64,000 bases of DNA from Echinicola vietnamensis DSM 17526 (lineage in GTDB: Bacteria > Bacteroidota > Bacteroidia > Cytophagales > Cyclobacteriaceae): assembly GCF_000325705.1 (NCBI RefSeq), contig NC_019904.1:5191501-5255500 (forward strand). The letters are read 5' to 3'. Both the position numbers and the translations under genes were made by a program. A model generated the notes under the pieces. That model had not been told where the DNA came from. It did not search any database and saw only the letters and a program-made list of their open reading frames with translations. Numbering within the stretch: position 1 is the first letter of the stretch; every line of letters starts with the position of its first letter. Shown one piece after another: positions 30,611-53,076 of this stretch.

Positions 30611-30697
30611 ATCCTTTTTTGGTTTGATGATGGTACAAATCTCAAAAAGGCCGCAATAAAAAATTCACCAGTCGGTGCGGACTCCGGTAAAAAAAAT
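30611..30697 (-). promoter_or_regulatory. tra operon promoter and operator (shared with the mob operon)
   Basis: Read on the minus strand: an eight-T run, a CCGGAGTCCG quasi-palindrome and ACTGGTGAA (30664-30697), then 23 bp further on a TTTG-type promoter core (GAGATTTG, 30636-30643), then the start codon at 30610. The same blocks occur upstream of the mob operon (52994-53076): TTCACCAGT lies 54 bp from the start codon here and 52 bp there. The TTTG core resembles the Bacteroidota -7 box (TAnnTTTG). Regulator binding is inferred. Confidence 0.65.
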
Positions 30698-30869
30698 CTC
30701 CGAAGCACCAATCCTTGGCCCCTCCCTTGGGACCAGGGCCCTTTCCGACCACACGGGCCAAGGGTACCAGGCCCGGAGGGAAACTTCACTCCATGACCGG
30801 TTGCACTGCCCCGGCCATTGGGCAATGCCAAGCCGCACCCAGGACGGTCGCCCCATGCATTGGAAGGGA

Positions 30870-31709
30870 CTAGAGTCCTTCACTCTCCAGTATATAGTCC
30901 TCCAATTTCTCCTTCAGCACCTCCAGGAACAATGTCCTTCCCTTTTTACGGATCCTGATCTCCTGGAACCGTTTATATACGTCCCCCATGTCCCCACCGA
31001 GCAGTTGCCCCATGACCTTGGCCACTTCCCTGATCTCTGCCTGTCCATGGTTGAGCACTCCGGCCACTTTTAGGGCATAGACGAGTTCTACCAACTGGTT
31101 TTTCTTCCCCGTCCATTTGAGTGTCACCTGTTTCTGTGCCGTGGCCGGCGGTCCTTGGAGGGACTGGATGGCCGAATTGATGTACTTGTTGATCCTGATA
31201 GCGGCAAGTATGGTCGAGATCCCCAAGCAGGCCACGGTACAACTGCTCCTGTCGATCGGTGTGTGAAAGGCCCTTGACACCAGAAAGTCGGCCCTTCCCG
31301 CCCGCAAAAAATAATGCCGGTCGAAATGGGTCCTGTCCAGCATGTAATATTGGTGAAGGTCCCTGTTGAAATTCAAAAATGCCTGGAGCTTTTGCTGTTC
31401 TTTCAGGAGGTATTTGACCTGGTCACCTTTTTGGGAAATCGGCCGTGCTGATTCCAGGTTGAACAGTTCGGCATAATAGATGGATTCCGAATGGAAATCC
31501 GGCTTTATGTGCTTAAAAAAATGGATTTCCGCTGCCTCGTCACCGAATTCATATTTTGCCAGGGCCACATCGAGCTCCCCCAGTACCTTTTCGGCATTTT
31601 TGTGTGCGGCCTGCAAATGAAACAAACGGTCCTCTCCCAGGGCACTGGCCTCTGGCAGCTCCCTGTCCAGGCGTTCTTTTAGCGTTTGGGCCAATTTTTG
31701 AATATCCAT
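30870..31709 (-). CDS. rteC: RteC-domain regulator
   Basis: A 279-residue protein of the RteC family, which in CTnDOT activates the excision operon. Seen: the helical N-terminal part, EIHFFKHIKPDFHSESIYYA, the DRHYFLRAGRADFLVSRAFH block and the winged C-terminal region LKWTGKKNQLVELVYALKVA followed by FQEIRIRKKGRTLFLEVLKE. It starts 4 bp after the stop of the Crp-like gene, so the two are co-transcribed. No RteA/RteB pair lies next to it, so its control differs from that of CTnDOT. Confidence 0.88.
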   Translation of the reverse strand: MDIQKLAQTLKERLDRELPEASALGEDRLFHLQAAHKNAEKVLGELDVALAKYEFGDEAAEIHFFKHIKPDFHSESIYYAELFNLESARPISQKGDQVKYLLKEQQKLQAFLNFNRDLHQYYMLDRTHFDRHYFLRAGRADFLVSRAFHTPIDRSSCTVACLGISTILAAIRINKYINSAIQSLQGPPATAQKQVTLKWTGKKNQLVELVYALKVAGVLNHGQAEIREVAKVMGQLLGGDMGDVYKRFQEIRIRKKGRTLFLEVLKEKLEDYILESEGL

Positions 31710-31713
31710 GGTT

Positions 31714-33243
31714 TCAGTTGGTTTTCCTTGCGTGCATCAAAATTGTCCTGTACCAGGTCTCCCATGCGGCCACCTGTCCTTCCATCAATTCCAAAAATGC
31801 CGACATTCCATTTCGTGCTTCATTTGGCCTTTCGGCAAAAAACTTTTCCTTGAGGGCATTCATGAGCTCCCTTTCCTCTCCGTACGCTTCCATGAGTTCC
31901 CGCACCACCCTTTTGCTGTCCTTGCGTTCCGCCCTGCTTTTAAGGGGTACCAGGTTATGGGGAAGGTTGCCGAACACCACCGTGTCCACGGCCAATATTT
32001 CATTGGACAACCGTACCAGGTTGCTGCCCATTTCCATATAGGCCTCCAAAAATCCCTGGTGGGGCCTCAGTTCCCGCCACTGTTCCCTGTAGACGATCTT
32101 CAGCAGCTGCATGCACAGTTTACCTTCCGAAAACCGTTGGCGCTGCCGTTCATATTCCCTTATTTGGGATTCGGTCTCAATGGGATAATGGATGAATTGC
32201 CAGTCCCTGCCGCCGACATAGTCCCCTATCAAGGCCGACAGTAATTCAACTCCTTCGGCATCCATGGAAATTTCATTGAACAGGTCTTTTACTGCCGTAA
32301 CATAGGCCTGTCCCCGTACCGGTACATCCGACTGTGTTCGTGTCCGTAGACCGGGATCTATCCATGTCTTTACCTCCTTCCAATATTTGGATCGTTCCCT
32401 TAGCGGTACCTGGTACATAAAAACATCAATGGCGGTAAGCAGGGAGATCACCCTACCTGCCCAGGCCACCCGCTCCTCGTTCCCCAGGGGATATAGCCTC
32501 CCCACCAAAAAATCCATTTTCATTTCCCCCAAGGTCCTGGCCGCCTCGGTATTCAGTGGCACAAAAAAATAGGTCCGCCAGGCATCCAGTGAGCCTTTGA
32601 TGAATTCCCGCTCACGGTGGTCCCGCAAGGGGAAGCCCTTGTGCAGGACCATTGAGGTCCGGTCTGAGGTCCTTTCCCCGGGATCCGTCCCGATCCTTGC
32701 CATGGTCCTGATGGAGATGTCCAGCAGTTGCGCCAACTGCTTCTGGGTCAGTTTTCCCACTTCACCCCTTAATTTCTCCCTGACCATCCGCCATGCCGAT
32801 CGATAGGGCAGTCCATCGATTTCCGTCCAAAACCGCTCCCAGCTTTCCGTATGGGCCACCACCCTTTCGTATAAAATCCTAAAACCCTCCATATTGGGAA
32901 GGATCATCTCCAGGTTGTCCCTTGAGCAACAGGCCACCCTGCACGGTTGCAGGGCGACCACTTCATGGTTGCTGTCCAATTGCTTCTCGAAACTTGCCAG
33001 GTCCATGGCAAAATACTGTGGCGGGTATACCCGGCGTAGCCTGTTGTTCAGGGTGATCCCCGCCAACCCTTCCATGATAAAATTCACTTCGTTTTCTTCC
33101 CTGCCCTTTTTTCTGATCACTTCGTTTTTCCGATAGGTAAAAAATTTAACCCGGTGCTCGATGGATTCATAGTGTTCCATATCCACCTTGTAAAAATCGT
33201 CCAGCAGGTCTTTGAGTTTTTCGAGGTCCGATAACTTTTTCAT
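31714..33243 (-). CDS. Crp/Fnr-like regulator with a large unknown C-terminal domain
   Basis: A 509-residue protein. Residues ~15-125 look like a cyclic-nucleotide-binding jelly roll (HRVKFFTYRKNEVIRKKGRE, VNFIMEGLAGITLN). A helical linker follows, then a short HTH-like segment (KLTQKQLAQLLDISIRTMAR, near 180-200). Usual Crp/Fnr proteins end near 220; here ~300 further residues follow (for example REREFIKGSLDAWRTYFFVP and a helical C-terminus) that I do not recognise, though the RTYFFVP...DFLVGRLYPLG stretch is loosely reminiscent of RteC (DRHYFLRAGRADFLVS). It precedes rteC by 4 bp in one operon. It may be an input sensor for ICE excision or transfer, which is inference. Confidence 0.7.
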   Translation of the reverse strand: MKKLSDLEKLKDLLDDFYKVDMEHYESIEHRVKFFTYRKNEVIRKKGREENEVNFIMEGLAGITLNNRLRRVYPPQYFAMDLASFEKQLDSNHEVVALQPCRVACCSRDNLEMILPNMEGFRILYERVVAHTESWERFWTEIDGLPYRSAWRMVREKLRGEVGKLTQKQLAQLLDISIRTMARIGTDPGERTSDRTSMVLHKGFPLRDHREREFIKGSLDAWRTYFFVPLNTEAARTLGEMKMDFLVGRLYPLGNEERVAWAGRVISLLTAIDVFMYQVPLRERSKYWKEVKTWIDPGLRTRTQSDVPVRGQAYVTAVKDLFNEISMDAEGVELLSALIGDYVGGRDWQFIHYPIETESQIREYERQRQRFSEGKLCMQLLKIVYREQWRELRPHQGFLEAYMEMGSNLVRLSNEILAVDTVVFGNLPHNLVPLKSRAERKDSKRVVRELMEAYGEERELMNALKEKFFAERPNEARNGMSAFLELMEGQVAAWETWYRTILMHARKTN

Positions 33244-33515
33244 AGTTTCTTATTTAGATTAAAAAAACCAACATTCAGGCATGGCAAAAAACCCATTCCT
33301 CAACAGTCAAGGAAAAAGCAACCACACATTAAAACAATGGCTTTCAATAGATTATGGAATCAAACTAAAAAGAGTTCAAAAATCAAGTCAAGTTTTTCAA
33401 GCACTTTTTTCCATTTAACCTCAAAAAAAGGACATTTTCGTACCCAAAGTATGACATTTTCATACTTTACGACCCTCCTATTGTAATTTTCTATGTTATC
33501 GTCGAATTTGAAGCC
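33244..33515. promoter_or_regulatory. Divergent control region, Crp-like regulator / mauE-like gene
   Basis: The gap contains a direct repeat, GACATTTTCGTAC (33431-33443) and GACATTTTCATAC (33453-33465), exactly 22 bp apart, and an interrupted palindrome AAAGTATGA-CATTT-TCATACTTT (33446-33468). Both lie 50-85 bp upstream of the mauE-like start. The 22-bp period (two turns) is that of an operator bound by a dimer or by two monomers on one face. The regulator encoded next door is a candidate. The leftward promoter for the regulator is not obvious. Confidence 0.5.
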
Positions 33516-33947
33516 ATGAAAACGACGGCAACAGATTCAAAGGATCCATTATATCAAACGGCAGCCATCCTTTACCTGTCCCTATGGACATTTACGGGGA
33601 TCGAAAAGTTAGTGGATTACGCTAGCTACCTTGGAGAAATCAGGAACCAGGTTTTCCCCCTGGCTTGGGCAGAAGGGCTAGCTCCGACCGTCCTGATCAT
33701 CGAATTGCTATTGGCATTGCTGCTTTTGAACAGCAAGACCAGAAAAACCGCCCTATTGCTTTCAACCCTGTTGATGACCGCTTTTACGACCTATATCGGT
33801 CTTGTCTGGATGGGGGCATTCCCAAGGGTTCCCTGCTCGTGTGCGGGCTTTCTTGAGGCAATAGGCTGGAGTGGACATTTACTGTTCAACGCGGCATTTA
33901 TACTCTTGGGAATAATAGGCCTGATAAGGCCACTAAACACGATATAG
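33516..33947 (+). CDS. MauE/DoxX-like redox-associated membrane protein
   Basis: A 143-residue protein with four membrane helices (TAAILYLSLWTFTGIEKLVD; LAPTVLIIELLLALLLLNSK; ALLLSTLLMTAFTTYIGLVW; LFNAAFILLGIIGLI). A Cys-x-Cys pair (Cys107, Cys109 in FPRVPCSCAGFLEAIGW) sits at the end of the third helix, the expected periplasmic side. MauE is needed for disulfide-rich methylamine dehydrogenase maturation and its relatives are suspected electron donors or acceptors for thiol chemistry. In Bacteroidota such genes sit beside DUF6520 genes and SusC/SusD/TlpA clusters, as here. The partner is unknown. Confidence 0.78.
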   Translation: MKTTATDSKDPLYQTAAILYLSLWTFTGIEKLVDYASYLGEIRNQVFPLAWAEGLAPTVLIIELLLALLLLNSKTRKTALLLSTLLMTAFTTYIGLVWMGAFPRVPCSCAGFLEAIGWSGHLLFNAAFILLGIIGLIRPLNTI

Positions 33948-34079
33948 AAGAAAATCAACAATAACTGCCCAATCTCACGGGAAAAAGTCATTAGGTGAGA
34001 TTAATCTTTTCCCCAGGCAGCAAATGGAGGAAGCCGAAAATCCCGATAAGAGTAGGCAACGTAACCATAAAACGTTTAT

Positions 34080-34104
34080 GGGATTTTGATGGTCAAAAAT
34101 CCCG
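34080..34104 (+). other. Hairpin before the small secreted protein
   Basis: GGGATTTTGA and TCAAAAATCCC pair with one bulge around a TGG loop, ending 10 bases before the ATG at 34114, so the hairpin would sit on the ribosome-binding region of the mRNA. It could set the translation level of the small gene relative to the mauE-like gene upstream. Role inferred. Confidence 0.4.
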
Positions 34105-34113
34105 ATTTCAATC

Positions 34114-34383
34114 ATGAAAAAACTATTGAAAAACATGCCGCTATTGGCCTTTGTACTGGCAGCGGCCAGCGCGCTGGCCATTAACCTTCCGGCTGAAGAG
34201 GTCCAAGGGACCAAAGAGGCGCTGAACCCGGCCAATAACCAGTGGGAGGACATCACTGGACAAATGCAGGGCATCCACTATAACTGTGACGAGGAAGTGG
34301 AAACGGACTGTACCCGTGAACTGGACGAGTTCGGCCAGGAAATCGCCGGCACCCGTGTGGAAGGAGAATACCAACCACTTTAG
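34114..34383 (+). CDS. DUF6520-like small secreted protein
   Basis: An 89-residue preprotein. The signal peptide (MKKLLKNMPLLAFVLAAASA, cleavage near LAINLPA) leaves an acidic mature chain of ~65 residues with only two cysteines (Cys58, Cys66 in HYNCDEEVETDCTREL). It matches the DUF6520 pattern of small exported Bacteroidota proteins. It lies 166 bp after the mauE-like gene on the same strand and ends at a strong bidirectional terminator. The two cysteines could form a disulfide, with the neighbouring MauE-like and TlpA-like proteins supplying redox control. That link is inference. Confidence 0.7.
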   Translation: MKKLLKNMPLLAFVLAAASALAINLPAEEVQGTKEALNPANNQWEDITGQMQGIHYNCDEEVETDCTRELDEFGQEIAGTRVEGEYQPL

Positions 34384-34398
34384 GGGCAGGGGTTAAAA

Positions 34399-34427
34399 AA
34401 AGGCCAGGGGCAGAACCCCTGGCCTTT
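34399..34427. terminator. Bidirectional terminator between convergent genes
   Basis: A perfect 12-bp stem, AAAGGCCAGGGG / CCCCTGGCCTTT, with a CAGAA loop lies between the converging DUF6520-like and susD-like genes. On the minus strand it is followed by a T-run (TTTTTTAACC), and on the plus strand by TTT in the stem. Confidence 0.9.
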
Positions 34428-34430
34428 GAT

Positions 34431-35786
34431 TTACCTTGGATTCTGTGGGATTCCGTTCATTTGGATTTCGTCCATGGGTATTGGAAAGGCATATTTTGCA
34501 TCGCCAGGATTCAGCCGATAGGTAAGGTCCCCTAATTGCCGGACGATCGTTTTTTCATACCTACTACCAGAAAGCCGTCTCAGGTCTTCCCATCGCAGCC
34601 CTCTGAACACCAACTCCTTCCTTCTTTCTCTGAGGACCTTTCCCAACAGTTCCTCTCCGGCAAGGCCCGATACTTCTTCAAAAGCCCCATCCTCATAACG
34701 ATGTTCCAAGAGCTCATTCAGACATCCCAGGGCCAGGGCATCATCACCCAGCCTTACGGCGGCTTCCGCTCTGGACAGCAACAGTTCATCCGTCGCTATC
34801 CCATCAAATTGATAGAGATTGCCCATATAGGTACCTTTGAACTTAACCTGTCCCTCTTCATTCGGAGCGGTAAAGAACAAATCCTTTCTAAGATCACCCG
34901 GGCCGTACTCATCATACAGTTCCGGTACAATAAAAGCATCGGATGTATAGGCAACGGACCCAGAGGAAAAGTAGCTGCAATAGATGATTTCCTTGTTCAG
35001 TCCCGTGAAGCCGAAAGGTCCACTTGAATTTAAAGCGGCGTAGTCCATCAGCTCGGCATTCAGGTCAAGGGCCTTACCGGTAGATTCCAACACCTTTTCA
35101 TAATTTCCCATCGTAAGGTATACTCTTGAAAGCAGGCCGTATACGGCCTGCTTGGATGGCCTTGTGGTCACCGGGACCTTGTCGGGAAGATAGGGCAGTG
35201 CCTGCTCCAGGTCCCCTATCACCTGTTGGTAGCATTCCGATATTCCGGACCTGCCGGCCAACTTGTTGACATCTGCTTCCAGCCGGATAGGAATACCCAA
35301 CTCTTCCGGTGCTAGATGGAAGGGCATCGTAAATATCCTGAGCAGGTTGTAGAACGCACTGGACCTGTAGACCAATGCACTTCCGTACAGGTGCTCCCAT
35401 TTCTGCCCTTCACTGTCTTCCCGGATCCTTCCAAGTTGTTCGATGGACACATTGGCATAGAAAACCTGCTCGTACAGATTGTTCCAGGCCACCGAACGGC
35501 CGGAGGGAAAGACCTGGTCGTTCCATATATGGGCGTTCCTTGCGGTCTCGCTCCAGCTATCCCATTCTGCCCTGGTTATTGTATAGTCATCGGAGGCGAT
35601 CTCCCCCAGGTCTGCATTCCTGTTCATAACGTAATCATTGTCCAATAAGGCCTGGATGTCCTCTAGGTTATCGGGAACCACCAGTCCGGTATTCGGCTTT
35701 TCATCCAAAAAACTATCACAGGCAGTCAGTAGGTGTACGATACTGATTATCATAATGGCAATGGGGTAAGGAGTTATCTTTTTCAT
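34431..35786 (-). CDS. SusD/RagB-family lipoprotein (ICE cargo)
   Basis: A 451-residue surface lipoprotein with type II signal MKKITPYPIAIMIISIVHLL, then TACDSF, Cys23 being the lipidated residue. It has SusD-like helices (SALVYRSSAFYNLLRIFTMP) and the C-terminal signature LRERRKELVFRGLRWEDLRR. It is shorter than polysaccharide-type SusD proteins and closer to the RagB-like group paired with peptide or unknown-substrate transporters. It is separated from the susC-like gene by 264 bp, an unusually wide gap holding a small hairpin (CCACCG / CGGTGG, 35917-35938), which may uncouple the expression of the two. Confidence 0.88.
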   Translation of the reverse strand: MKKITPYPIAIMIISIVHLLTACDSFLDEKPNTGLVVPDNLEDIQALLDNDYVMNRNADLGEIASDDYTITRAEWDSWSETARNAHIWNDQVFPSGRSVAWNNLYEQVFYANVSIEQLGRIREDSEGQKWEHLYGSALVYRSSAFYNLLRIFTMPFHLAPEELGIPIRLEADVNKLAGRSGISECYQQVIGDLEQALPYLPDKVPVTTRPSKQAVYGLLSRVYLTMGNYEKVLESTGKALDLNAELMDYAALNSSGPFGFTGLNKEIIYCSYFSSGSVAYTSDAFIVPELYDEYGPGDLRKDLFFTAPNEEGQVKFKGTYMGNLYQFDGIATDELLLSRAEAAVRLGDDALALGCLNELLEHRYEDGAFEEVSGLAGEELLGKVLRERRKELVFRGLRWEDLRRLSGSRYEKTIVRQLGDLTYRLNPGDAKYAFPIPMDEIQMNGIPQNPR

Positions 35787-36050
35787 GGATTATTAACTTA
35801 TTAGGTCAAAGAAAAAAGGTCCCGGTTTCCCGTATGGAAACTTGTCCCGCTTTTGGTTTTTAATGTATGGTACTTACATATGAAGAAAGTGGCGGTTAGG
35901 GACCTGAAGCCTGTAACCACCGTATCATTTTTCGGTGGCTCCATTTATGTTAAAAGCAGCCACTGCCCGGTCTTCCCCTTAGTGCTATTAGGTAGTTTTC
36001 ATTTATTGTTGAACATATAAATAAATGGGCAGGGCTGCTTATTTGTGGTT

Positions 36051-44339: not shown

Positions 44340-46405
44340 TCAAGAAGGTTGTTCATCCAATGGAATGGCAAACCAAAAGGTACTTCCTTTTCCCTGTTCT
44401 GACTCTACCCCAATTTTTCCATTGTTCATTTCAATGTATTGCCTGCTCAGGACAAGCCCCAGCCCTGTACCTATTTCATGGTGGGTACCTTCTGTGCTCA
44501 TGTTCACTTCATCGAAGATATGCGGCAACCTTTCTGCTGGAATACCTGTACCAGTATCCACCACGGAGACCATCAACAACCTTCCCCCACTATTGGTCTT
44601 ATTGTTAATGATGATCTGGTCACCCTGTCCAGAATATTTAATGGCATTGGCCAGAAAGTTACGTACAACAATTTTGACCATTTCCACATCGGCAAGGACC
44701 ATCCTTGGTCCTGTACGATCAATGATCTCTATCCCTTTCTTTGTTGCGTCAGGGAGGAGTAAAGATATGGTCTTTTTCACTATTTCCTTTATTTCAAACC
44801 TGACCGGACGTGCTGAAGTTTCGGTCATCTGGCTTTTCGCCCACAAGACGAGGTCCTTTACAAAATAATTGACCTCGCTTAATTTCGTGCCGATCTCCTT
44901 GGTAAGCATTTCCATTTCTTCTTTGGTGAACATCCCTTCCTGATACATGTCAATGGTACTTTTAAGGGAGTTCAACGGTGTCTTTACATCATGTGCCACT
45001 ACTGACAATATCCTGTCCTTGAAATTCCCCATCCTTTCAAGTTCCCTGTTCTGAGCATCCATCTCTTCTTGGTGTTTTTTTTGTATCCTATTGGTACGGC
45101 GTATATTTCGGAGATAGAGAAATAACAACAGGACCATCAAGACCAATAATATCGATAGGACGAGGATAAAATAGGTGAAATTACGCTGGCGAAGCAATTG
45201 CTCCCTGTGCTTTTGGTTGACTGTTTTTATCGCTTGGTCATGCCGGAACTGCTCCTCGGCTCTCACCAATTGAATCCTTACCTCTTGATTCATCAAACTG
45301 TCTCCAAGAAGGGTATATTCCTGATAACTGTCAAGTGCTGCTTTATAATCGCCCTTTGCCGCTTGTATCCCACTTAAGACAAGTAATCCCTCTCTTGTCA
45401 GGGCAATATGGTTGATTTTCCGTGCCATATGGAGTCCTCTTTGCACTTGAACATAAGCTTCAGTCGGTTTCCCTGCCTCAAGTAGGCATTTTGCTATTTT
45501 AAGGTCTGCTTCGGCTACTTTTTGTTCGGTCCCCATCTTCATCGCAATATTTATTGCTTCAGCATACTTTTCCATGGCCGTCACCGGATTTCCCGTCTGC
45601 TCCAATAAGTCCCCCAAAGCCATATAGGACCTGACCATTCCGGCCCTATGCCCCCCCCTACTTTCTTTTAATGCCCGCTCATAAAACTCATTGGCTTTTG
45701 CATGCAGGTTTTCCTGGAGATACGACCGGCCTATCCTTATATCCAACATGTGCTGGATATCGTGGTAACCTGAACGGTCATATAGGGACTTGCTCAGGGT
45801 ATAGGACTTCCTTGCTTCCCGTAAATTCCCCTGAAGCTCATGGACCTGTCCAATGGTCCAGTGATTTCGGGCCACTTGCTTGTCAAAACCGTTTTGGGTG
45901 GCGATTTCCAAGCCTCTATAAGCCAGTTGCTGTGCCTTTTCGTACAAACCTATATCCAAGTAGACCATCGACAGGTTTATGCACAATACCCCTATTTCCT
46001 TTCTGAATCCCAATTTTTCGGCCTGTGCCATTGCATCCTTTTCCACCACTATGGCTTCCTTGAAGTTTCCTTTTTCATAATGGGCCGTACCGATATTGAT
46101 CAGCGCGGCCAACACTCCCCGTTCGTATCCTATTCGATTGCTAACCAGAAGGGCCCTTTTCGATATGGCCATCACCGAATCCGGGGCGGTACTCCAATAC
46201 CGGAATTGATATAGCCTGTGTCCTTTTCGTAACCGGGATCTTGCTGAAACTGCTCTACTTTTTTCCGCAAACTATCCCTGTCCAGCTCCTGGGCGAACGT
46301 TACGGAGGACAGTACAATATTTACTGCCCAAAGGTACCAAGATGCTATACAGGACTTACGTACCATAAAAATGTACACTTTAGTTTTCTTGCTCTTGGTA
46401 TACAA
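44340..46405 (-). pseudogene. TPR-containing sensor histidine kinase, frameshifted near its N-terminus
   Basis: The kinase frame (44340-46175) encodes TPR repeats (about 1-290), a membrane span (FTYFILVLSILLVLMVLLLF), HisKA with SVVAHDVKTPLNSLKSTIDM, and HATPase motifs NAIKYSGQGD, VVDTGTGIP and GTGLGLVLSR. Its signal peptide and first ~60 residues are in another frame (46172-46405: AVNIVLSSVTFAQELDRDSL, then QFQQDPGYEKDT) that stops at 46172. Upstream of its first start, the kinase frame still reads YQFRYWSTAPDSVMAISKRA, matching the usual beginning of the TPR region, so one protein has been split by an indel near 46180-46260. It is probably inactive unless translated by re-initiation, in which case it would lack a signal peptide. 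Confidence 0.78.
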
Positions 46406-46696
46406 TAAATAAACTTTGACATTAAATAACCATTATTCCCCCTTAAAATTTTCGAAAAAACCACTTTGCCACCATTGGTTTTGCCATGATGAATTTTATA
46501 AGAAAAGCCCATTTAAGTCCTTCAATCCAAGAATGGAGGGAAACCATTTCTGAATACTAAAAGGCACCTTCCATACGGATTTCGCAATTCCTTGGCCTTT
46601 CATGAGCCTGACTTAGTTTACCATTCAGCTACCTTACTTTTGCAATTCAACCATGGTTCAATCCGCTATGGGCTTCAAGTCACCAATTATGGATCT
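46406..46696. other. 291 bp between the kinase and the mob operon
   Basis: No gene recognised. The kinase promoter should lie at the left edge and the end of the mob transcript at the right edge. No hairpin with a clear T-run was identified after the mobC stop at 46697. Confidence 0.4.
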
Positions 46697-48679
46697 TTAT
46701 CGCTTTCTGATGATCAGGCCTGCCAGTCCTGGGCTGTCCAGCATCCTGTCCAGTTCCGACTCTATCAGTTCGCTGACCTCGGATTTGATCCTTTTGTAAT
46801 TATTGGCCACTTCGTGTTCGGTTAGTTTCCTGCATGGTGGAATGGGCCGGTATCCTCTTTCTTCCCTTCGGATTGCCTCATGGTCATTTTGGATAGCGGC
46901 ATGAAACCCCTTTAATTTGATGGGCTGATCGGGCGTATCGGCCACCATCCCCACAAATTCCCCCGAGGACAGGGAGGCGATCGTAGATTGGGGCACTGCA
47001 AGGTCAAGCTGTACCGAATGGCTTATGGAGGTATCGTTGGAATTGACGGACCTGCTCTGCCTGGGCTGTCGGATCTTCCCAAACCGTTCGGACAATTGCT
47101 TTGCCGTATCGCCAAGCACCTGCCCTGAAACGATATTGCCCACCGTGTTCATGATCACCTCTGCATGCTCCCTGCCGTAGTCCTTTTTGAGCTGGCTGTA
47201 ATCCTGAACGCCCAGACAGGTCGCCACCTTGTTGCTCCTTGCCGTGGCGATCAGGTTATCTATCCCGTTAAAATAAATGGTCGGAAATTCATCGAAGACC
47301 AGGCTGGACTTGAGCTTTCCCTTCTGGTTGGCCAGCTTGGTGATCCTGGAAATATACAGGCTCAGCACTGCACCGTACACCTGTTGCTTTTGTGGGTTGT
47401 TTCCCATGCATACGATCTTCGGCCTGTCCGGATTGTTGATGTCCAGGGTAAATTCACTTTCGGAAAGCACATAGTAAAGCTGTGGGGAGGATAACCGGGC
47501 CATGGTGATCTTTGCACTGGCAATCTGGCCTTCAAGTTGATCGGCAGCCCCTTGCATAAATGCGGAGACAAAGGGATTGATCAGCACCTCTATCTCCGGT
47601 TCACACCGCAGGACCGAAAACAGCTTCTCGTACTCTACCTGCATCATTTCAATGACATGGGGAAGGGTACAGTACTTCCCTTCCTTGTACCGTTTGAGAA
47701 ACCAGATCACGGCAGTTAGAAAATTAATCGGCGATTCTACAAAGAAGTCCCCTTGTTTTTTAATCCATTCCCTGTTTAGCCCCATCATAATGGTCCGAGA
47801 AGCCTCGCTGGCATCGGTGATGTCCAGCATGGTGGACGGTTCAAGGGGATTGCACCGATGACTGCGGGAAAGGTCATCAAAATTGATGGTGTAGAATGTC
47901 GGTGCTATCCTGTAGGCGGCCTTATTTTTCCGCAGGGCATTATAGGCAATTCGGGAGAGGTCATCGTACTTAAAATCATAGATAAACATGGAAAAGCCCT
48001 TAGCTATGTGTTGAACGATCACATGCCGGATGACAAAATAGCTTTTCCCTGAACCTGGTGTTCCCAATACCAACAGGGCCCGGAAGGGGTTGATGATGTT
48101 GATCCAGCTGGGCCTGCTTTTTTGTTTCAGGCGGTATATCGCCGGTAGGTTCACCGAATATTCATTTTCAAGCAGGCGCTCCTCTTGGGGAAAGGTCTCA
48201 TTGTCATGATTGAACACGTCCTTGCTCACCTGCTCTTTTAAACAGCGCGACAACCTACTCCCTCCCCATAGGACCATAAGGTAGCCTGTCACCATGGAGA
48301 TAAGGTAGCAGTATCCGAAAACCAAACGGCCCAGCACTACTGCCTCCCAATAGGTGGCCAAGAAAAACAGGACACTTCCCAGCACCATGGTGATCAAGGC
48401 CGGCAGCCACTTTATGGCGGTATCTTTTTTCCCCTTTGCACCAAGCAGGCTAACGTAGAGCATTCCCAAACATAGTATTTTTGCATAAATGTCGTCCTTC
48501 AGAAAAGGCAATTCCCCTACGTTCTCCACAAATACCGTTAGGACGGGCAAGGAAAGTCCCCATTTTGAAAAGACGCATGGAAGTTCCAGGTAAAGGTGGA
48601 TGAGCAAGATGGCAATGCTTACCTTACGGGTGAGGTCAAGGATCTTACGAAGGGTCTGTTGGTTCTCTCCTGTAGCCAT
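46697..48679 (-). CDS. mobC: Type IV coupling protein MobC (VirD4/TraG family)
   Basis: A 660-residue coupling ATPase that brings the relaxase-DNA complex to the mating channel. N-terminal membrane helices (about 18-135, for example YAKILCLGMLYVSLLGAKGK and AVVLGRLVFGYCYLISMVTG) precede the ATPase domain: Walker A LVLGTPGSGKSYF (Gly206-Ser213), KSSLVFDEFPTIYFNGID with Walker B near 455-460, and ATCLGVQDYSQLKKDYG. It shares one base with the relaxase stop, so the two are coupled. Bacteroidetes elements place mobC downstream of mobA and mobB, as here. Confidence 0.92.
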   Translation of the reverse strand: MATGENQQTLRKILDLTRKVSIAILLIHLYLELPCVFSKWGLSLPVLTVFVENVGELPFLKDDIYAKILCLGMLYVSLLGAKGKKDTAIKWLPALITMVLGSVLFFLATYWEAVVLGRLVFGYCYLISMVTGYLMVLWGGSRLSRCLKEQVSKDVFNHDNETFPQEERLLENEYSVNLPAIYRLKQKSRPSWINIINPFRALLVLGTPGSGKSYFVIRHVIVQHIAKGFSMFIYDFKYDDLSRIAYNALRKNKAAYRIAPTFYTINFDDLSRSHRCNPLEPSTMLDITDASEASRTIMMGLNREWIKKQGDFFVESPINFLTAVIWFLKRYKEGKYCTLPHVIEMMQVEYEKLFSVLRCEPEIEVLINPFVSAFMQGAADQLEGQIASAKITMARLSSPQLYYVLSESEFTLDINNPDRPKIVCMGNNPQKQQVYGAVLSLYISRITKLANQKGKLKSSLVFDEFPTIYFNGIDNLIATARSNKVATCLGVQDYSQLKKDYGREHAEVIMNTVGNIVSGQVLGDTAKQLSERFGKIRQPRQSRSVNSNDTSISHSVQLDLAVPQSTIASLSSGEFVGMVADTPDQPIKLKGFHAAIQNDHEAIRREERGYRPIPPCRKLTEHEVANNYKRIKSEVSELIESELDRMLDSPGLAGLIIRKR

Positions 48680-49947
48680 TATGATCGGTTTGGGGAAAAT
48701 TTGGAATTTCGGGACCTTGGGAGGGAAATAGACTGTTTGGGCAGGACATCCCTGAGCCTGCTCACCCTTTCAACGAATTTCTGGAATTCCGGTGCGGTAT
48801 CCAGCTTCCATACAGGTATTTCTTCCTTCCGATAAGCATTATCCACGGTTTCTTCATGCCCTCCATTGCTTGACTTTTCCTCTAGTGCTTCCTGGATCAC
48901 GGGATACCTTTCCACCAACTTAATGGCCACTTGCCGTGAAACTTCCCGTAACAATTTCCCGGAGATGGTGAACGTCGTCCTGTTAAGGTGGTCTATGGCT
49001 ATTGCCCTTTTCTTATCCCTTCCCATTTGGATACTGATGGCAAATCCATTTTTTTTAAATGTTCCATCCAGGTCCATCAATGCATCTTTTACCATGTTAT
49101 CCTGCACTTCCAAAAAGCGTTCTTTTGCTTCAGCCACTTTGGAGGGAGACACTCTTTTATTCCGTTCCATCCGATTGGTTATACTTCCAAATGTGGGACG
49201 CAGGGATAAGGAACTTGCTTTCACCAAACCTCCCAAATGCCTTCCATGATCGTCCAATGGACAATAGGCCAGTCCACGGTTCCTCCACATCCTCCCTCCT
49301 CTTTTGCCCTGTACCAGCCCCACGTTGAACTGGTGCAAAACAGCTGCAAATTCAGCTATTGAGCCAAAGGTATACTGGCGCAAGACTCCCTTTATGATGC
49401 TTTCCATCCTACCGAGGGTTTCTGTTTTACCATACTCAAGTTTCTCCAAACGTGCCGGATATGAATGTTGCTCCGGTGGTTGAGGAGAAGAATGACGTCC
49501 CATCTCGGCCACCAACTCCCTACAGGCCTTCTTGGAGAGTGTCTTACCCAAATGATGGGTTTCCAACCGTTTTCCGTTTTTGGATATGGTAGTACTGAGG
49601 ACATGTATGTGGGGTTTGTAACTATCTGTATGGTTGAACACCACATAGGGTTGTTTGCCGTAACCGATTCGTTTCATGTATTGCTGGGCTATGTATCGTA
49701 AACTGCGTTTATCCAAACTGTCCGTTTGGGAAAAATGCAGGAAGATATGGATCGCATTTACCTTTACCCTATTGTTCCTGAGAGTATAGGATCGAAAATA
49801 CGCATTCAATTCCTTTCGGTCCATACGCTCCCCCTGGCCCCCAAAACCGTGTACCGTGATCAAGTCGGCCTTGCCTTCACTGATCTTCCTGAAATGGTAA
49901 TAAAGGATGCTGTTTATGTTCCTTCCTACCTTTATCACTGCCATCAT
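48679..49947 (-). CDS. mobB: Relaxase MobB
   Basis: A 422-residue relaxase of the MobB type found on Bacteroidetes elements. It nicks at oriT and leads the strand into the recipient. The metal-binding triad is visible as His106 (VFNHTDSYK), His113 and His115 (KPHIHVLSTT). The catalytic Tyr probably lies near the N-terminus (ILYYHFRK, Tyr16/Tyr17). It starts with a 4-bp overlap with mobA. The C-terminal ~200 residues carry basic DNA-contact sequence. The oriT itself was not located and is expected near the mob promoter. Confidence 0.9.
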   Translation of the reverse strand: MMAVIKVGRNINSILYYHFRKISEGKADLITVHGFGGQGERMDRKELNAYFRSYTLRNNRVKVNAIHIFLHFSQTDSLDKRSLRYIAQQYMKRIGYGKQPYVVFNHTDSYKPHIHVLSTTISKNGKRLETHHLGKTLSKKACRELVAEMGRHSSPQPPEQHSYPARLEKLEYGKTETLGRMESIIKGVLRQYTFGSIAEFAAVLHQFNVGLVQGKRGGRMWRNRGLAYCPLDDHGRHLGGLVKASSLSLRPTFGSITNRMERNKRVSPSKVAEAKERFLEVQDNMVKDALMDLDGTFKKNGFAISIQMGRDKKRAIAIDHLNRTTFTISGKLLREVSRQVAIKLVERYPVIQEALEEKSSNGGHEETVDNAYRKEEIPVWKLDTAPEFQKFVERVSRLRDVLPKQSISLPRSRNSKFSPNRS

Positions 49948-50324
49948 TTCCTGAAATGTCCTTGTACCACTTTCTCCAAAACCTCCAATTTCACCAGCGC
50001 CTCCTTCACCATTCCTTCCAGCCGTCTGGCCATTTTCCGGTTCCTGGGAGTATCATGGTTGACCAAAAATCCATGGACCATTTGGTCTACGTTCACCCCT
50101 ATTTCCTGGATTTCCATGTGAATGGCATGCATCCCTTCCAGGACCCTTTCATAGGTCTGATCATGTGTTCTACACTTGATAGGCCTGTTTGACAGGATTT
50201 GCCTTATCAGCGCACTCATGGAGTGGTTGGTTGATTTCGACAACAGTCCCAACAGCTCTTGGTAGTGGTCTTGGGATATCTTGGACATCACCACAACTTT
50301 TTCCGTCTTTTGCTTTGTCGCCAT
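49944..50324 (-). CDS. mobA: Mobilisation accessory protein MobA (ribbon-helix-helix)
   Basis: A 126-residue protein with an N-terminal RHH-like DNA-binding segment (KVVVMSKISQDHYQELLGLL, then SMSALIRQILSNRP) and a helical C-terminal half (LEGMHAIHMEIQEIGVNVDQ). This is the relaxosome accessory factor that helps MobB at oriT. It begins 6 bp after the stop of the small IS-disrupted gene, so it is downstream of the insertion and may be expressed poorly or from an IS-borne promoter. Confidence 0.88.
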   Translation of the reverse strand: MATKQKTEKVVVMSKISQDHYQELLGLLSKSTNHSMSALIRQILSNRPIKCRTHDQTYERVLEGMHAIHMEIQEIGVNVDQMVHGFLVNHDTPRNRKMARRLEGMVKEALVKLEVLEKVVQGHFRK

Positions 50325-50330
50325 AAAACA

Positions 50331-50542
50331 CTAGTTTTCGAGATTGTACAACCAGTCATGGGCAGCCTCTTTCCAATTGCCTAGCGGCATGCCATTTTCC
50401 TTGTGCCACCCGGTGGACTGGTAGTAAAAATAAAACACTTCTGCCTCGGAAACGGGGACGGACTGTTGTAAAAAAAATGACTTTACCTCTTCAAAATGCG
50501 GTGTCGAGGAAAGGATATTGTTTGATGATTTTGTGTTATAGT
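50331..50542 (-). pseudogene. Small mob-operon gene, 3' part (interrupted by IS66)
   Basis: The minus strand from the IS edge to the TAG at 50331 continues the frame begun at 52993. Joined at the 8-bp duplication the gene has 72 codons: MANYNTKSSNNILSSTPHFE to GNWKEAAHDWLYNLEN. The C-terminal part (EAEVFYFYYQSTGWHKENGM, then PLGNWKEAAHDW) looks like the short helical tail found in small proteins of Bacteroidetes mobile elements. Function unknown. It was the first gene of the mob operon. After insertion only 5 codons remain on the promoter side. Confidence 0.8.
50535..50542. repeat. IS66 target-site duplication (left copy)
   Basis: GTTATAGT here is repeated exactly at 52979-52986, directly outside the GTAACC ends of the IS. 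Eight bp is the duplication size expected for IS66-family elements. Its perfection implies a fairly recent insertion. Confidence 0.95.
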
Positions 50543-50554
50543 GTAACCGCCCTA

Positions 50555-52108
50555 TTAACCGCGTGTTGTTTGGTTAAAGTTTTGTGGGTATAGGTCACGG
50601 ATGTTCTTATGGTTGGTGGTCATGATATTTCTCAGAGCATGTTCGAGCCACTGTTGGGGATTGACGTCATGTAATTTACAGATGCCGAAGAAGGAATAGA
50701 TCATGGCCGCCCTTTGGGCCGCTTTATGGGAGCCGGCAAACAGGTAGTTTTTTCTGCCGACCACCATTGATCTGATTTCCCTTTCCACGGGATTGTTGTC
50801 GATCTCCAGTTTACCGTCATACAGGTAATTGGACAGTTCGGCCCATCTGTTTGCCGAGTAGAACAGGGCTTTTCTCAGCCCACTTTTGGGCAGGGCCTTG
50901 GGCAGCTGCTTCTTGATCCACTCGGACATTTTGTTGATCACCGGCAAGGCCTCGTCCAAACGGAGCTTCTTGCGGTCTTCGGCAGAGAGGTTTTCCTTCT
51001 TGGCCTTTCTTTCCACATCGTAAAGCTTGCCGATAAAGCCCAGGGCCTCGGAAGCGGCCTTCTTGTTTTCCACCAAGGTCTCAAAAAACTTTCTCCTTGC
51101 ATGTGCCCAACAGGCCAGGTGGGTGACCTGCTTATTGGCCACATAATGTTCGTACACGCCATATCCATCACTCTGCAGGTAGCCCTGAAAGTTTTCCAGT
51201 ATGGCACTGGGGCCTTCCTTGCTCCGGGTAGGCCGGTAATCAAAGAGTACGGTGTTTTCCAAAGGGTTATGGTATACCCAGTAGTAACCCGTGTGGCAGG
51301 CGCCCTTCTTGTTGTCGCTGTCCAATACCCGGATGGTACTCTCGTCCACCATAAGATAGCCCATGGCCTTGGTGTCGTCCACCAGACAGTCGTACAGGGG
51401 TTCGAGTTTTTCCAGCCCCTGTTTCACCCATCCCTCAAGTGTGGTGGGCGCTATGGGGATCTTTTCCCGTTTGAAACGCTGCGCCTGCCGGTACAGCGGC
51501 ATATGTTCCAGGTATTTCCTTGTAAGGATGTCGGTGAGCAGGCCGTAACCCGGGATGCCCTTTGGAATGGCCCTTTCCGGCAACAGGCCGATCTTTACCC
51601 CGGCACTGCTGTACCTGTCCTTTGGGGCATACTTATAGCGGATGTATCTTCTGCGGATATATTGGGCAGGGATATAGTCCAGCTCTTCGGTCACTTCCTT
51701 GCCGATACACTCCATGCCGGAAAGGTCCCCTTCCGGATGGATCTCGATCTCTTCCACGGGAAGGTGGTCGGGCAAGGGCTGTCTGCCCGTATGGGCGGGA
51801 CGTTTCTTGCGGATGTATTCCACCTTGCGGGAAAACCCTTCCTGCTGTTGCTGTTCTTGCTCTTGGTCAGGTTCAAAGGGCAGGGCCATCTGGTCCTTGT
51901 TCCCTAAAAAGCGCTCCCGCTTCTGGGCAAAGGACATGCGCTTGAACTTCTCGATCATCGCCAACAACTGCTTCTCATAAGCTTCTTTCTCGGCCAGGAT
52001 ACGTTCCTTCTCGGCTATCACCCGCTCACGGTCGGCCACCTGTTGCTCTGACTTTTGCAGCAGGGCAAGCAGTTCGGCTTTGGTCAACTGGTCGAGTGGC
52101 TTTGACAT
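50555..52108 (-). CDS. tnpC: IS66 transposase TnpC
   Basis: A 517-residue DDE transposase. A coiled-coil start (LLALLQKSEQQVADRERVIA) is followed by a zinc-binding-like domain lacking most cysteines (KRPAHTGRQPLPDHLPVEEI), the catalytic core (DESTIRVLDSDNKKGACHTG, then LQSDGYGVYE and HLACWAHARRKFFE) and the C-terminal EIDNNPVEREIRSMVVGRKN with the final acidic residue. The length is standard for IS66 TnpC. Confidence 0.95.
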   Translation of the reverse strand: MSKPLDQLTKAELLALLQKSEQQVADRERVIAEKERILAEKEAYEKQLLAMIEKFKRMSFAQKRERFLGNKDQMALPFEPDQEQEQQQQEGFSRKVEYIRKKRPAHTGRQPLPDHLPVEEIEIHPEGDLSGMECIGKEVTEELDYIPAQYIRRRYIRYKYAPKDRYSSAGVKIGLLPERAIPKGIPGYGLLTDILTRKYLEHMPLYRQAQRFKREKIPIAPTTLEGWVKQGLEKLEPLYDCLVDDTKAMGYLMVDESTIRVLDSDNKKGACHTGYYWVYHNPLENTVLFDYRPTRSKEGPSAILENFQGYLQSDGYGVYEHYVANKQVTHLACWAHARRKFFETLVENKKAASEALGFIGKLYDVERKAKKENLSAEDRKKLRLDEALPVINKMSEWIKKQLPKALPKSGLRKALFYSANRWAELSNYLYDGKLEIDNNPVEREIRSMVVGRKNYLFAGSHKAAQRAAMIYSFFGICKLHDVNPQQWLEHALRNIMTTNHKNIRDLYPQNFNQTTRG

Positions 52109-52278
52109 GCCCGAAAATAAAACCTCCCGCTTATAAAACCATGGACTTTTTTTCCACAGCCCCTGTGGAAAAAAACCTCAGGAGATGATTTCGGCCATTC
52201 TGGCTTCAAAAAGCTGTCCGTAGGACTAACAGAAGGGCATACAGCCCCGAAAAGCTGAACACGGGTCAGTAAAAAAAA

Positions 52279-52620
52279 TCAACCGGGGATATACCGGGGA
52301 CGCTGCCGGTAGCCTTCCACCTGGATGCCCGCGACCATCAGCACCAGTTCGGGCCAATCCAGCACGCCGTCACCCCTGTCCTCCGGGAGCAGGAAAGTGC
52401 CTTTTTCCAATCGTTTGTAATAGACCACGAAACCGCCCTTCTCCCAGTGCAGGAGTTTGATCAGGTTGCGGTGGCGGTTGACAAAGACGAACACTTCCCC
52501 GGAGACCGGGTCACGGTCCAGTTCATTGGTGACGATCCCGGAAAGCCCGTTGAACCCTTTGCGCATGTCAACCGGGCTGCGGTACAGGAAATATTGGTGG
52601 TGGGAGCCCAGCGAAAACAT
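52279..52620 (-). CDS. tnpB: IS66 accessory protein TnpB
   Basis: A 113-residue IS66 Orf2 protein (MFSLGSHHQYFLYRSPVDMR, KGFNGLSGIV, FVFVNRHRNLIKLLHWEKGG, FVVYYKRLEKGTF). The frame is open to 52797, but the ATG at 52620 overlaps the tnpA stop (TGATG), the usual coupling in this family, and gives the normal length. Required for efficient transposition. The biochemical role is unclear. Confidence 0.93.
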   Translation of the reverse strand: MFSLGSHHQYFLYRSPVDMRKGFNGLSGIVTNELDRDPVSGEVFVFVNRHRNLIKLLHWEKGGFVVYYKRLEKGTFLLPEDRGDGVLDWPELVLMVAGIQVEGYRQRPRYIPG

Positions 52621-52907
52621 CAGTACAGCCTGATCAGGTTGGACAACAGCGATAGGTCCTCGGACGGCACCCGCAGCTTTACCCCGTTCGGGTACACCAC
52701 TTCCACCGCCTCTGCAGGAACACTGCTGCCCTGGGTACGGACCGGTAGAAAACCAGTGGGTTCCCGGACCTGTTCCCCCGCCAGCTTTCGGTACCAATAA
52801 TTGAACTTGGGATAACCGATCCCCTTTCGCGCACTGAAGGATTTCTGCGTCAGACCGCTGCTCTTGTACTCTTTGACAAGGGCGGCCATTTCTTCTTGTA
52901 GGTTCAT
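52620..52907 (-). CDS. tnpA: IS66 accessory protein TnpA
   Basis: A 95-residue IS66 Orf1 protein with an HTH-like start (MAALVKEYKSSGLTQKSFSA, then RKGIGYPKFNYWYRKLA). I take the ATG at 52907. A GTG at 52925 would add six residues. It is the first gene of the IS, 71 bp from the right end, and overlaps tnpB by one base. Confidence 0.9.
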   Translation of the reverse strand: MNLQEEMAALVKEYKSSGLTQKSFSARKGIGYPKFNYWYRKLAGEQVREPTGFLPVRTQGSSVPAEAVEVVYPNGVKLRVPSEDLSLLSNLIRLY

Positions 52908-52978
52908 CACTTTTGCTTTTTCCACAAAGCTATGCGGTCAAAACACGCCATGAAACATGTACTTTATAAGGTGGTTAC

Positions 52979-52993
52979 GTTATAGTTTGCCAT
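52979..52993 (-). pseudogene. Small mob-operon gene, first five codons (MANYN)
   Basis: The ATG at 52993 reads MANYN before the IS66 right end. The 8 bases next to the IS are the second copy of the duplication. The continuation is at 50331-50542. Confidence 0.8.
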
Positions 52994-53076
52994 GATCAAT
53001 AGTTTTTGATTCAATGGCAAATTCACAAACAGAAAGAAAACAATTTCACCAGTTGGACCGGAGTCCTGAAAAAAAT
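52994..53076 (-). promoter_or_regulatory. mob operon promoter and operator (shared with the tra operon)
   Basis: On the minus strand: a T7 run, GGACTCCGGTCC (near-palindrome) and ACTGGTGAA (53045-53076), then 22 bp later a TTTG-type core (GAATTTG near 53018-53024), then the ATG at 52993. Element identity, order and spacing match 30611-30697 upstream of the tra operon. The rest of the two regions is otherwise unrelated. Confidence 0.65.

What the first reader, a model, noticed from the sequence alone, without database searches (positions are those of the whole stretch)
30611..53076. tra and mob operons share one ~30-bp operator and the same promoter spacing
Upstream of the tra operon (30664-30697) and of the mob operon (53045-53076), 22 kb apart, the same element occurs: TTCACCAGT, a GGANTCC quasi-palindrome and an A-run (plus-strand reading). 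The CAAAT core (TTTG on the coding strand) follows after 23 and 22 bp, and the start codon is 54 and 52 bp from TTCACCAGT. The surrounding sequence is otherwise unrelated, so selection for a common site is the simplest reading: a two-operon transfer regulon. The likely binding protein is RteC or the Crp-like neighbour. I know of no described operator of this form.
Basis: seen in the sequence. Interest (0 to 1): 0.78.

Follow-up and report, generated by a model that had tools for sequence, protein, structure and literature searches.

The report
RteC box driving two transfer operons
Two distant promoters of a conjugative element in a marine bacterium share one DNA switch, most likely bound by the regulator RteC, so that the element's DNA-export and DNA-processing genes would be turned on together.

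Summary
The same 24-bp element lies upstream of tra (30664-30687) and mob (53045-53068). Of 898 pairs of upstream regions compared, this pair scores 21 and the next 13. It is an 11-bp palindrome, 4 bp, then ACTGGTGAA, with ATTTG 23 bp (tra) or 22 bp (mob) on. It recurs at 9 of 9 tra operons of this type and 12 of 28 relaxase loci, the 12 most similar to the window's. In genus genomes 18 of 20 pattern hits are at these promoters.

RteC is the best candidate binder. It is the only regulator gene found beside all 9 tra operons; the Crp-like gene is replaced by a LytTR gene in 4. The RteC C-terminal domain groups with the box, the N-terminal part does not. A similar architecture recurs upstream of excisionase-like genes beside rteC in other Bacteroidota, including a CTnDOT-like element of B. 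fragilis; RteC is reported to activate excision genes in CTnDOT.

So this is probably an RteC box at tra and mob themselves, a variant of the CTnDOT cascade, where transfer genes follow the excision proteins. In this window an IS66 copy interrupts the first mob gene. Binding and transcript starts are untested.

The parts
30664..30687 (-). RteC-type box of the tra promoter: coding strand CCGGAGTCCGC (palindrome, plus-strand 30677-30687) + ACCG (30673-30676) + ACTGGTGAA (30664-30672)
   Evidence: read; conserved in 9 of 9 tra operons of this type
30688..30697 (-). T-run (A-run on + strand) upstream of the tra box
   Evidence: T at columns -21 to -18 in 17-20 of 21 boxes
30636..30643 (-). predicted -7 element GAGATTTG of the tra promoter; the ATTTG is 23 bp from the box
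   Evidence: 23 bp in 9 of 9 tra operons; start of transcription not mapped
30263..30610 (-). first gene of the tra operon (115 aa, no Pfam family), followed by traE, traF, traG
   Evidence: homologues at the same place in 8 other elements
27191..30285 (-). traE (DUF4134), traF (DUF4133), traG (TraG P-loop), start of the tra operon
   Evidence: Pfam
30870..31709 (-). rteC: RteC protein (PF09357), proposed binder of both boxes; C-terminal helix-turn-helix-like domain about residues 196-279
   Evidence: Pfam E 5e-69; trees by domain; models
31714..33243 (-). Crp-like 509-aa protein (N-terminal cNMP-binding match, below Pfam cut-off), 4 bp upstream of rteC on the same strand
   Evidence: a LytTR-type gene stands beside rteC in 4 other elements
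53045..53068 (-). RteC-type box of the mob promoter: coding strand CAGGACTCCGG (plus-strand 53058-53068) + TCCA (53054-53057) + ACTGGTGAA (53045-53053)
   Evidence: read; conserved in 12 mob loci
53069..53075 (-). T-run (A-run on + strand) upstream of the mob box
53018..53025 (-). predicted -7 element TGAATTTG of the mob promoter; the ATTTG is 22 bp from the box
   Evidence: 22 bp in 11 of 12 mob loci; the twelfth has no such promoter
52979..52993 (-). 5' end (5 codons) of the small first mob gene, cut by IS66; its other part lies at 50331-50542
   Evidence: the start of the gene runs on without IS66 in L075 and L076
50543..52978 (-). IS66-family insertion sequence (tnpA, tnpB, tnpC) with 8-bp target duplication GTTATAGT (50535-50542 and 52979-52986)
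   Evidence: Pfam for tnpB and tnpC; ends read
46697..50324 (-). mobA (MobC_2 / Bacteroid_MobA), mobB relaxase, mobC coupling protein (YWFCY, TraG/TraD type)
   Evidence: Pfam; NCBIfam (for mobA and mobB, below NCBIfam cut-offs)

Best explanation
The element is an RteC box: a binding site for the element's own RteC protein, placed just upstream of a Bacteroidota-type promoter ([AT]TTTG at -7) at both the tra and the mob operon. RteC binds with its C-terminal helix-turn-helix-like domain, and its site is a palindromic pair of half-sites plus a further half-site (ACTGGTGAA) about one helical turn closer to the promoter. It then activates both promoters together, so the secretion apparatus (tra) and the relaxase and coupling protein (mob) are made at the same time. 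The Crp-like gene next to rteC, or a LytTR gene in other elements, is proposed as the input that governs RteC. Shown: the box, its conservation, fixed spacing, its near-restriction within the genus to tra and mob, the recurrence of a similar lay-out at excisionase-like promoters beside rteC, and its co-segregation with the RteC C-terminal domain. Inferred: that RteC binds it, that binding activates, and the order of inputs.
For: (1) Conservation: 9 of 9 tra operons of this type and 12 of 28 relaxase loci (the 12 best-scoring, 210 bits and up) carry the box; the other 13 of 22 TraE loci have 5 or more mismatches to it. Of 20 pattern hits in genus genomes, 18 are at tra or mob; the reversed control has none there. 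(2) The palindrome centre stands out: 3.67 of 5 pairs against 0.5-2.4 at all other centres tested. (3) rteC is beside 9 of 9 tra operons (with an in-frame stop in G006b), the Crp-like gene in 5 and a divergent LytTR-type gene in 4; G009 has no Crp-like homologue at E <= 1e-5 in its whole genome and G006 only a short 25% match. (4) The 8 intact box-bearing RteCs form one group by C-terminal domain (94/91; 91% of 200 bootstrap trees) and in none by N-terminal domain. Across the two subgroups C-terminal identity is 55-72%, N-terminal 18-24%. (5) Arms CCGGAGTCC / GGACTCCGG go with K246-R247, and arms CCC...GGG with R-[IV], in 3 and 6 RteCs; G005 (Echinicola rosea by P0003) holds one element of each kind, each with matching tra and mob boxes. 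(6) Out of sample: the rule [TG]GTGA[AT]-N21-24-[AT]TTTG hits downstream of rteC in 7 of 29 loci from other families, against 1 of 29 upstream and 1 of 29 antisense; palindrome score 3.0 at the predicted centre against 0.6-1.9 elsewhere. (7) A widened box score is significant (p < 0.05) in 12 of 24 promoter regions of excisionase-like genes, among them CTn214 of B. fragilis; RteC activates excision functions including Xis2c in CTnDOT (passage in PMC5729914). (8) Five further rteC elements of the family have an analogous shared element at tra and mob (two of the five, G000b and G008b, have 99% identical RteCs).
Against: No binding or transcript data. The change of arms and helix is one evolutionary event, not several. 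rteC lies next to tra, so linkage could explain part of the co-segregation at tra (less so at mob, 22 to 76 kb away box to box in the seven elements with an unambiguous pair). A Crp-like homologue (33%) exists in G008 over 1 Mb from its elements, and a 22% match to the first 183 residues lies about 31 kb from rteC in G009, so a Crp-like role in trans is not fully excluded. Four more distant rteC elements (G011, G023, G025, G034) show no shared tra/mob element above shuffles. The invariant ACTGGTGAA does not change with the arms between the two groups. Both trees carry long-branch warnings, and the branch that joins the LytTR-type N-terminal parts to G006a and G005b has 83/83 only. Foldseek gave no significant match for either RteC model. 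The score was widened after reading, its rows are partly related, 12 of 24 are not significant (including L005 and L006, in which one search shows a box-like stretch), and by that score the second-type boxes are weak one by one (p 0.05-0.63).
Confidence: 0.8

Rival explanations
1. The box is bound by the Crp-like protein encoded beside rteC.
For: The Crp-like gene (31714-33243) is 4 bp from rteC on the same strand and has a cNMP-binding match (below cut-off). Homologues, if distant, exist elsewhere in G008 (33%, over 1 Mb away) and as partial matches in G009 and G006.
Against: The box occurs in 4 elements without a Crp-like gene in the 40 kb around rteC, which have a LytTR-type gene there instead; G009 has no homologue at E <= 1e-5 in the genome. 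Arm type does not follow the Crp-like gene: G005d and G010a have it and share arms with the LytTR group. By recall, the Crp half-sites TGTGA...TCACA have the opposite polarity.
Confidence: 0.06
2. RteC represses rather than activates: the box blocks tra and mob until RteC is displaced.
For: ACTGGTGAA overlaps the place where a -33 element would be, so a bound protein could hinder polymerase. The sequence alone does not tell the sign of control.
Against: The palindrome centre is about 46 bp upstream of the end of the -7 element, outside the core promoter; a -33 TTTG or TTG at the usual distance (consensus recalled) is not seen; in CTnDOT RteC is an activator (passages in PMC5729914, and PMC10865816).
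Confidence: 0.08
3. A host-encoded regulator or the vegetative polymerase, not RteC, reads the box (for example ACTGGTGAA as an unusual -33 region).
For: TGGTGAA is nearly invariant (6 of its 7 columns identical in 21 of 21 boxes) while the arms vary; the distance to ATTTG is fixed at 22-23 bp.
Against: The box is not found elsewhere in the genome and within the genus 18 of 20 hits are in this element type. The arms change with the RteC C-terminal domain. Similar boxes recur beside rteC in other families.
Confidence: 0.07
4. An RNA-level element: the inverted repeat with following T-run at tra is an intrinsic terminator or attenuator.
For: At tra the repeat CxCCAGT-N8-ACTGGxG is followed by a T-run; of 7 tra copies folded, energies are -3.1 to -9.0 kcal/mol, of 7 mob copies -6.5 to -13.4.
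Against: The predicted folds differ from copy to copy and the tra form is not shared by mob (14 of 21 copies folded). The window mob copy has no T-run after it. A predicted -7 element follows at fixed distance, which places the box before the transcript. Rfam finds nothing there in the window.
Confidence: 0.03
5. Two copies of a mobile-element end or a recent duplication of one promoter.
For: An IS66 copy ends 66 bp from the mob box.
Against: The IS66 ends are defined (50543, 52978) and do not include the box; the flanks are unrelated; the palindrome core is AGT (TGT in two G008 copies) at tra and ACT at mob in all copies read; relatives without the IS keep the box.
Confidence: 0.01

Closest known systems
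RteC control of the xis2c excision operon in CTnDOT (Bacteroides)
   Same: Same regulator family (PF09357). In B. fragilis record NZ_OR675140 (by its strain name, 214, the CTn214 strain), the promoter of the first excisionase-like gene of the forward pair carries GTGAGTCACGT-AGTG-AGTTGTTAA and, 23 bp on, TTTTG, the same lay-out as the window boxes, the palindrome centred 1 bp further out. RteC activates excision functions including Xis2c (passage in PMC5729914).
   Different: Here the boxes are at tra and mob themselves. In CTnDOT transfer genes are activated after the excision proteins (passages in PMC5729914 and PMC9956884), and the mob/tra gap of CTn214 has no box by the same score (p 0.5-0.6). 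The published RteC site (Park and Salyers 2011) could not be read (not held), so letters were not compared with it.
Xis2d binding between mob and tra of CTnDOT
   Same: A common regulator for mob and tra of a Bacteroidota conjugative element (only the title of Hopp 2015 was seen, in a reference list).
   Different: There mob and tra are neighbours and the protein is an excisionase; here they are 22 kb apart with two copies of one box, and the candidate is RteC.
AcaCD or SetCD regulons of IncC plasmids and SXT elements
   Same: One master activator with several copies of one site upstream of transfer operons (recalled).
   Different: Unrelated proteins and sites; Bacteroidota promoter type (recalled, not compared here).

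Membership tests
RteC regulator family (PF09357) | Match to PF09357 over its length and above cut-off | tested here: met
   232.7 bits against cut-off 25.3, positions 1-217 of 219
RteC regulator family (PF09357) | DNA-binding C-terminal domain | tested here: inconclusive
   Model shows an all-helical C-terminal domain with an HTH-like helix 244-253; many Foldseek hits are homeodomains but none is significant (best E 0.83)
RteC box (as at excisionase promoters beside rteC) | Palindrome centred 10-11 bp before the right half-site | tested here: met
   Centre -10 best of all centres in 21 boxes; 4 or 5 of 5 pairs in 4 of 7 outgroup hits, 0-2 in the other 3
RteC box (as at excisionase promoters beside rteC) | Right half-site 22-24 bp before [AT]TTTG | tested here: met
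   23 bp in 9 of 9 tra, 22 bp in 11 of 12 mob; for outgroup promoters this spacing was part of the score
RteC box (as at excisionase promoters beside rteC) | Bound by RteC | not testable with these tools
   needs a binding assay
CTnDOT-type regulatory cascade (RteC to xis2c to tra/mob) | RteC box at an excisionase operon of the same element | tested here: inconclusive
   No third copy of this box in the genome at up to 3 mismatches beyond what the control gives; a more diverged box would have been missed and no excisionase gene of this element was sought
CTnDOT-type regulatory cascade (RteC to xis2c to tra/mob) | tra and mob lack their own RteC box | tested here: not met
   Boxes at both operons here; none at CTn214 mob/tra

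The most novel reading that the evidence does not exclude
In these cyclobacterial elements the RteC regulon has been rewired: RteC boxes were placed on the tra and mob promoters, so transfer genes answer directly to RteC instead of waiting for excision proteins. RteC is also modular: its N-terminal half and the neighbouring input gene (Crp-like or LytTR) have been exchanged while the DNA-binding half and the boxes stayed. Arm sequence and recognition helix changed together once, which would keep two elements in one cell (as in Echinicola rosea) from triggering each other.
Probability: 0.53. Interest if true: 0.72.

Novelty: new variant of a known kind. Interest (0 to 1): 0.6.

Why it matters
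RteC is a late step of the regulatory cascade that controls transfer of CTnDOT-type elements, well-known carriers of gene exchange in Bacteroidota. A box with fixed geometry that can be found from sequence alone would let RteC targets be predicted across the phylum. It suggests that the same regulator can be wired either to excision genes or directly to transfer genes. Paired changes of operator arms and recognition helix offer a simple code to test for specificity and insulation between co-resident elements.

Tried and rejected
Rejected: the Crp-like protein as main binder (not beside rteC in 4 of 9 elements); a terminator or RNA element; an IS or duplication origin; oriT (by reading only: the tra copy has no relaxase gene nearby). 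Led nowhere: full-length RteC fold search (0 matches at E <= 0.001, top hits are helical proteins unrelated in function); sequence search of RteC against the PDB (none); operator pattern in viral contigs; first tra gene in plasmids (none) and in 291 genomes of the order (only the window's own genome); pattern in the family outside the genus (by my count 43 hits in 41 genomes against 26 hits of the reversed control; flanks not inspected except for G079, whose hit begins like a mob promoter but lies inside a 428-aa open frame). One genome-contig scan with the first tra gene found only Echinicola shivajiensis (close relatives of the window may be left out there, and its two word patterns reach close kin only). 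Shared tra/mob element in G011, G023, G025, G034: none above shuffles. The CTTCGG-type search downstream of rteC in 29 phylum loci found none in sense; a similar architecture with other letters was then seen. The published RteC site could not be read (a guessed PMC number, also not held). No paper on such an operator was seen in the listings of searches of the held library, which lacks most subscription journals. The other 8 TraE loci and 10 relaxase loci without either box type were searched only with the patterns (and four pairs).

Rows left out: rteC loci G000a, G005a, G008a have no tra match in 40 kb and were not used in tra counts; the 40-kb surroundings were taken around 20 of the 29 rteC matches. 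G006b rteC has an in-frame stop and was left out of the trees; only its downstream open piece was read. L188 is probably chance (palindrome 0) but is counted in 7 of 29. The C-terminal structure alignment used 22 RteC loci. In one search, three promoters (CTn214, L206, L207) came from named plasmid records and 21 from fetched loci, four of them (L005, L006, L020, L021) of the window's own family.

Full report
Observation. Upstream of the tra operon (first gene 30263-30610, minus strand) and of the mob operon (first start codon 52993, minus strand) lies the same element. On the coding strand it reads CCGGAGTCCGC-ACCG-ACTGGTGAA (tra) and CAGGACTCCGG-TCCA-ACTGGTGAA (mob), each preceded by a T-run and followed after 23 and 22 bp by ATTTG. 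TTCACCAGT occurs only at these two places in the window. Among 898 pairs of 120-bp upstream regions of the window the tra/mob pair scores 21, the next best 13, and 1000 shuffles of the pair reach at most 13. In the whole genome (5.6 Mb) only these two places match exactly; allowing 3 mismatches adds two, as many as the reversed control gives.

Surroundings. The tra operon begins with a 115-aa protein without Pfam family, then traE, traF and traG; upstream lie rteC (PF09357) and, 4 bp from it on the same strand, a 509-aa protein with a weak cNMP-binding match. The mob genes are MobA-, MobB- and MobC-like. Between mobA (50324) and the promoter sits an IS66 element, 50543-52978, flanked by GTTATAGT on both sides, after codon 5 of a small first gene. 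Two relatives (L075, L076) show that gene start without the IS. The mob operon of this copy is therefore probably not read normally from its promoter.

Conservation. The genome belongs to the genus Echinicola (inferred from same-genus records named). rteC loci were sought in 59 genomes, own included (15 of 59 have a match), and 40-kb surroundings were taken for 20 of the 29 matches (one reaches 34 kb). Nine elements have the 115-aa first tra gene. All nine carry the box, with ATTTG 23 bp on. Of 28 relaxase loci in 16 genomes, the 12 best-scoring carry it, 11 with ATTTG 22 bp on; the twelfth (L093) has no such promoter. Of 22 TraE loci the nine of this type match with 0-3 mismatches and the other 13 have 5 or more. 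A pattern made of box and promoter, run on 390 genomes of the family, gave 20 hits in the genus, 18 of them at these tra and mob promoters, and 43 outside the genus against 26 for the reversed control, which has none in the genus. The two G008 tra boxes (ACTTGTGAA) and L093 are misses of that pattern. One outside hit was inspected and lies inside an open frame.

Anatomy. In the 21 boxes six of the seven columns of TGGTGAA are invariant, and the best dyad is an 11-bp palindrome centred 10 bp before ACTGGTGAA (3.67 of 5 pairs; other centres 0.5-2.4). A second dyad joins CxCCAGT with ACTGGxG over 8 bp, mainly at tra. Two arm types exist: CCGGAGTCC or its reverse complement (window, G003a, G005c) and CCC.....GGG with small departures (the rest). 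The core reads AGT at tra (TGT in the two G008 copies) and ACT at mob, that is, the palindrome is inverted between the two promoters. G005 (Echinicola rosea by its RteC record) holds one element of each arm type, and each element's tra and mob boxes agree.

Which protein. rteC is beside all nine tra operons (in G006b with an in-frame stop, and there the tra palindrome is degenerate, CCCCAGTAAAG). The Crp-like gene is there in five; the other four have instead a divergent gene of LytTR type (Pfam for the one scanned, 32-84% identity for the others). Genome-wide, G009 has no Crp-like homologue at E <= 1e-5, G006 a short 25% match, and G008 a full-length 33% homologue more than 1 Mb from its elements; a 22% match to the first 183 residues lies about 31 kb from rteC in G009. 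The RteC proteins are mosaics. Between the Crp-type and LytTR-type subgroups the N-terminal 190 residues are 18-24% identical and the C-terminal domain 55-72%, whereas the LytTR-type N-terminal part is 42-44% identical to those of G006a and G005b, elements without this box form. Trees agree: by C-terminal domain the eight intact box-bearing RteCs form one group (94/91; 91% of 200 bootstrap trees), by N-terminal domain in none of 200; the tool warned of long branches in both, and the N-terminal join with G006a and G005b has 83/83. The C-terminal domain is predicted as a helix-turn-helix-like bundle with helix 244-253 in the recognition position, with pLDDT 88 when folded alone. Foldseek finds no significant match; homeodomain-DNA complexes make up much of its weak list. 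Fifteen of the last 84 columns separate the two arm groups; eight lie in residues 231-247, among them K246-R247 against R-[IV]. This is one event on the tree, so it suggests and does not prove a specificity code.

Generality. In five other rteC elements of the family (G006a, G005b, G000b, G000c, G008b) the best shared stretch between the region upstream of tra and that of mob is again box-like, CC.C.CTTCGG...GTGTGA[AC]C, about 500 bp before traE and about 860 bp before the relaxase match, each scoring above 15 shuffles (18, 24, 17, 17, 16 against maxima of 14, 14, 16, 15, 15), with TTTTG or CTTTG 22-23 bp on in the eight copies shown. G000b and G008b have nearly identical RteCs, so these are not five independent cases. 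Four more distant elements show none. In rteC loci from 395 genomes across the phylum (39 of 395 have a match at E <= 1e-30) the core rule [TG]GTGA[AT]-N21-24-[AT]TTTG, taken from the window, hits downstream of rteC in 7 of the 29 loci handed out from other families and in 1 of 29 upstream and 1 of 29 antisense. At those hits palindromy peaks at the predicted centre (3.0 of 5 on average; single values 5, 5, 2, 1, 0, 4, 4; other centres 0.6-1.9). An excisionase-like gene lies nearby in many of these loci; the query used is an HTH_17 protein (PF12728), the kind to which, by recall, Xis2c belongs. A score widened after reading reaches p < 0.05 in 12 of 24 such promoter regions (10 at p about 0.01 or less; Fisher 1e-16, overstated because rows are related). 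In B. fragilis record NZ_OR675140, by its strain name the CTn214 strain (CTn214 is described as holding many CTnDOT genes, passage in PMC10865816), GTGAGTCACGT-AGTG-AGTTGTTAA, then 23 bp, then TTTTG precede an excisionase-like gene, but there is no box between mob and the ParA-type gene that opens the other side (p 0.5-0.6).

Reading. In CTnDOT, RteC activates excision functions including Xis2c, and transfer genes follow (passage in PMC5729914). The window's element keeps RteC and has box copies at tra and mob. The simplest account is an RteC regulon of two transfer operons, with interchangeable inputs (Crp-like or LytTR) and a fixed DNA-binding output. RteC binding, activation rather than repression, and transcript starts are inferred. 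Whether the element also has an excisionase under RteC was not settled. The published RteC site could not be compared (paper not held).

Verdict. It is a new variant of a known kind: a known regulator with a definable box, apparently wired to new targets.

Noticed in passing
50543-52978: IS66-family element with GTTATAGT target duplication inside the first mob gene; the mob operon of this copy is probably cut off from its promoter.
   Followed up: yes
33244-33515: Two GACATTTTC-TACT-like repeats about 21 bp apart in the gap upstream of the Crp-like gene, largely conserved in two relatives; possibly the operator of the Crp-like protein or another regulator.
   Followed up: no
34024-34058: Rfam match to DUF805b RNA (RF02914, 43.9 bits against cut-off 35.6) on the plus strand near the MauE-like gene.
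   Followed up: no
13833-17083: Three tandem tyrosine recombinases downstream of the tra region.
   Followed up: no
L085, L087, L093: mob loci with this box that have no tra or rteC match within about 20 kb; remnants or mobilisable elements that could be switched on by a resident element's RteC.
   Followed up: partly
L070/L071 (G006b): rteC with an in-frame stop beside a tra box whose palindrome is degenerate on one side (CCCCAGTAAAG).
   Followed up: partly
G008:C1:5333072-5334598: A full-length Crp-like homologue (33%) in G008, far from its rteC elements; not examined further.
   Followed up: no
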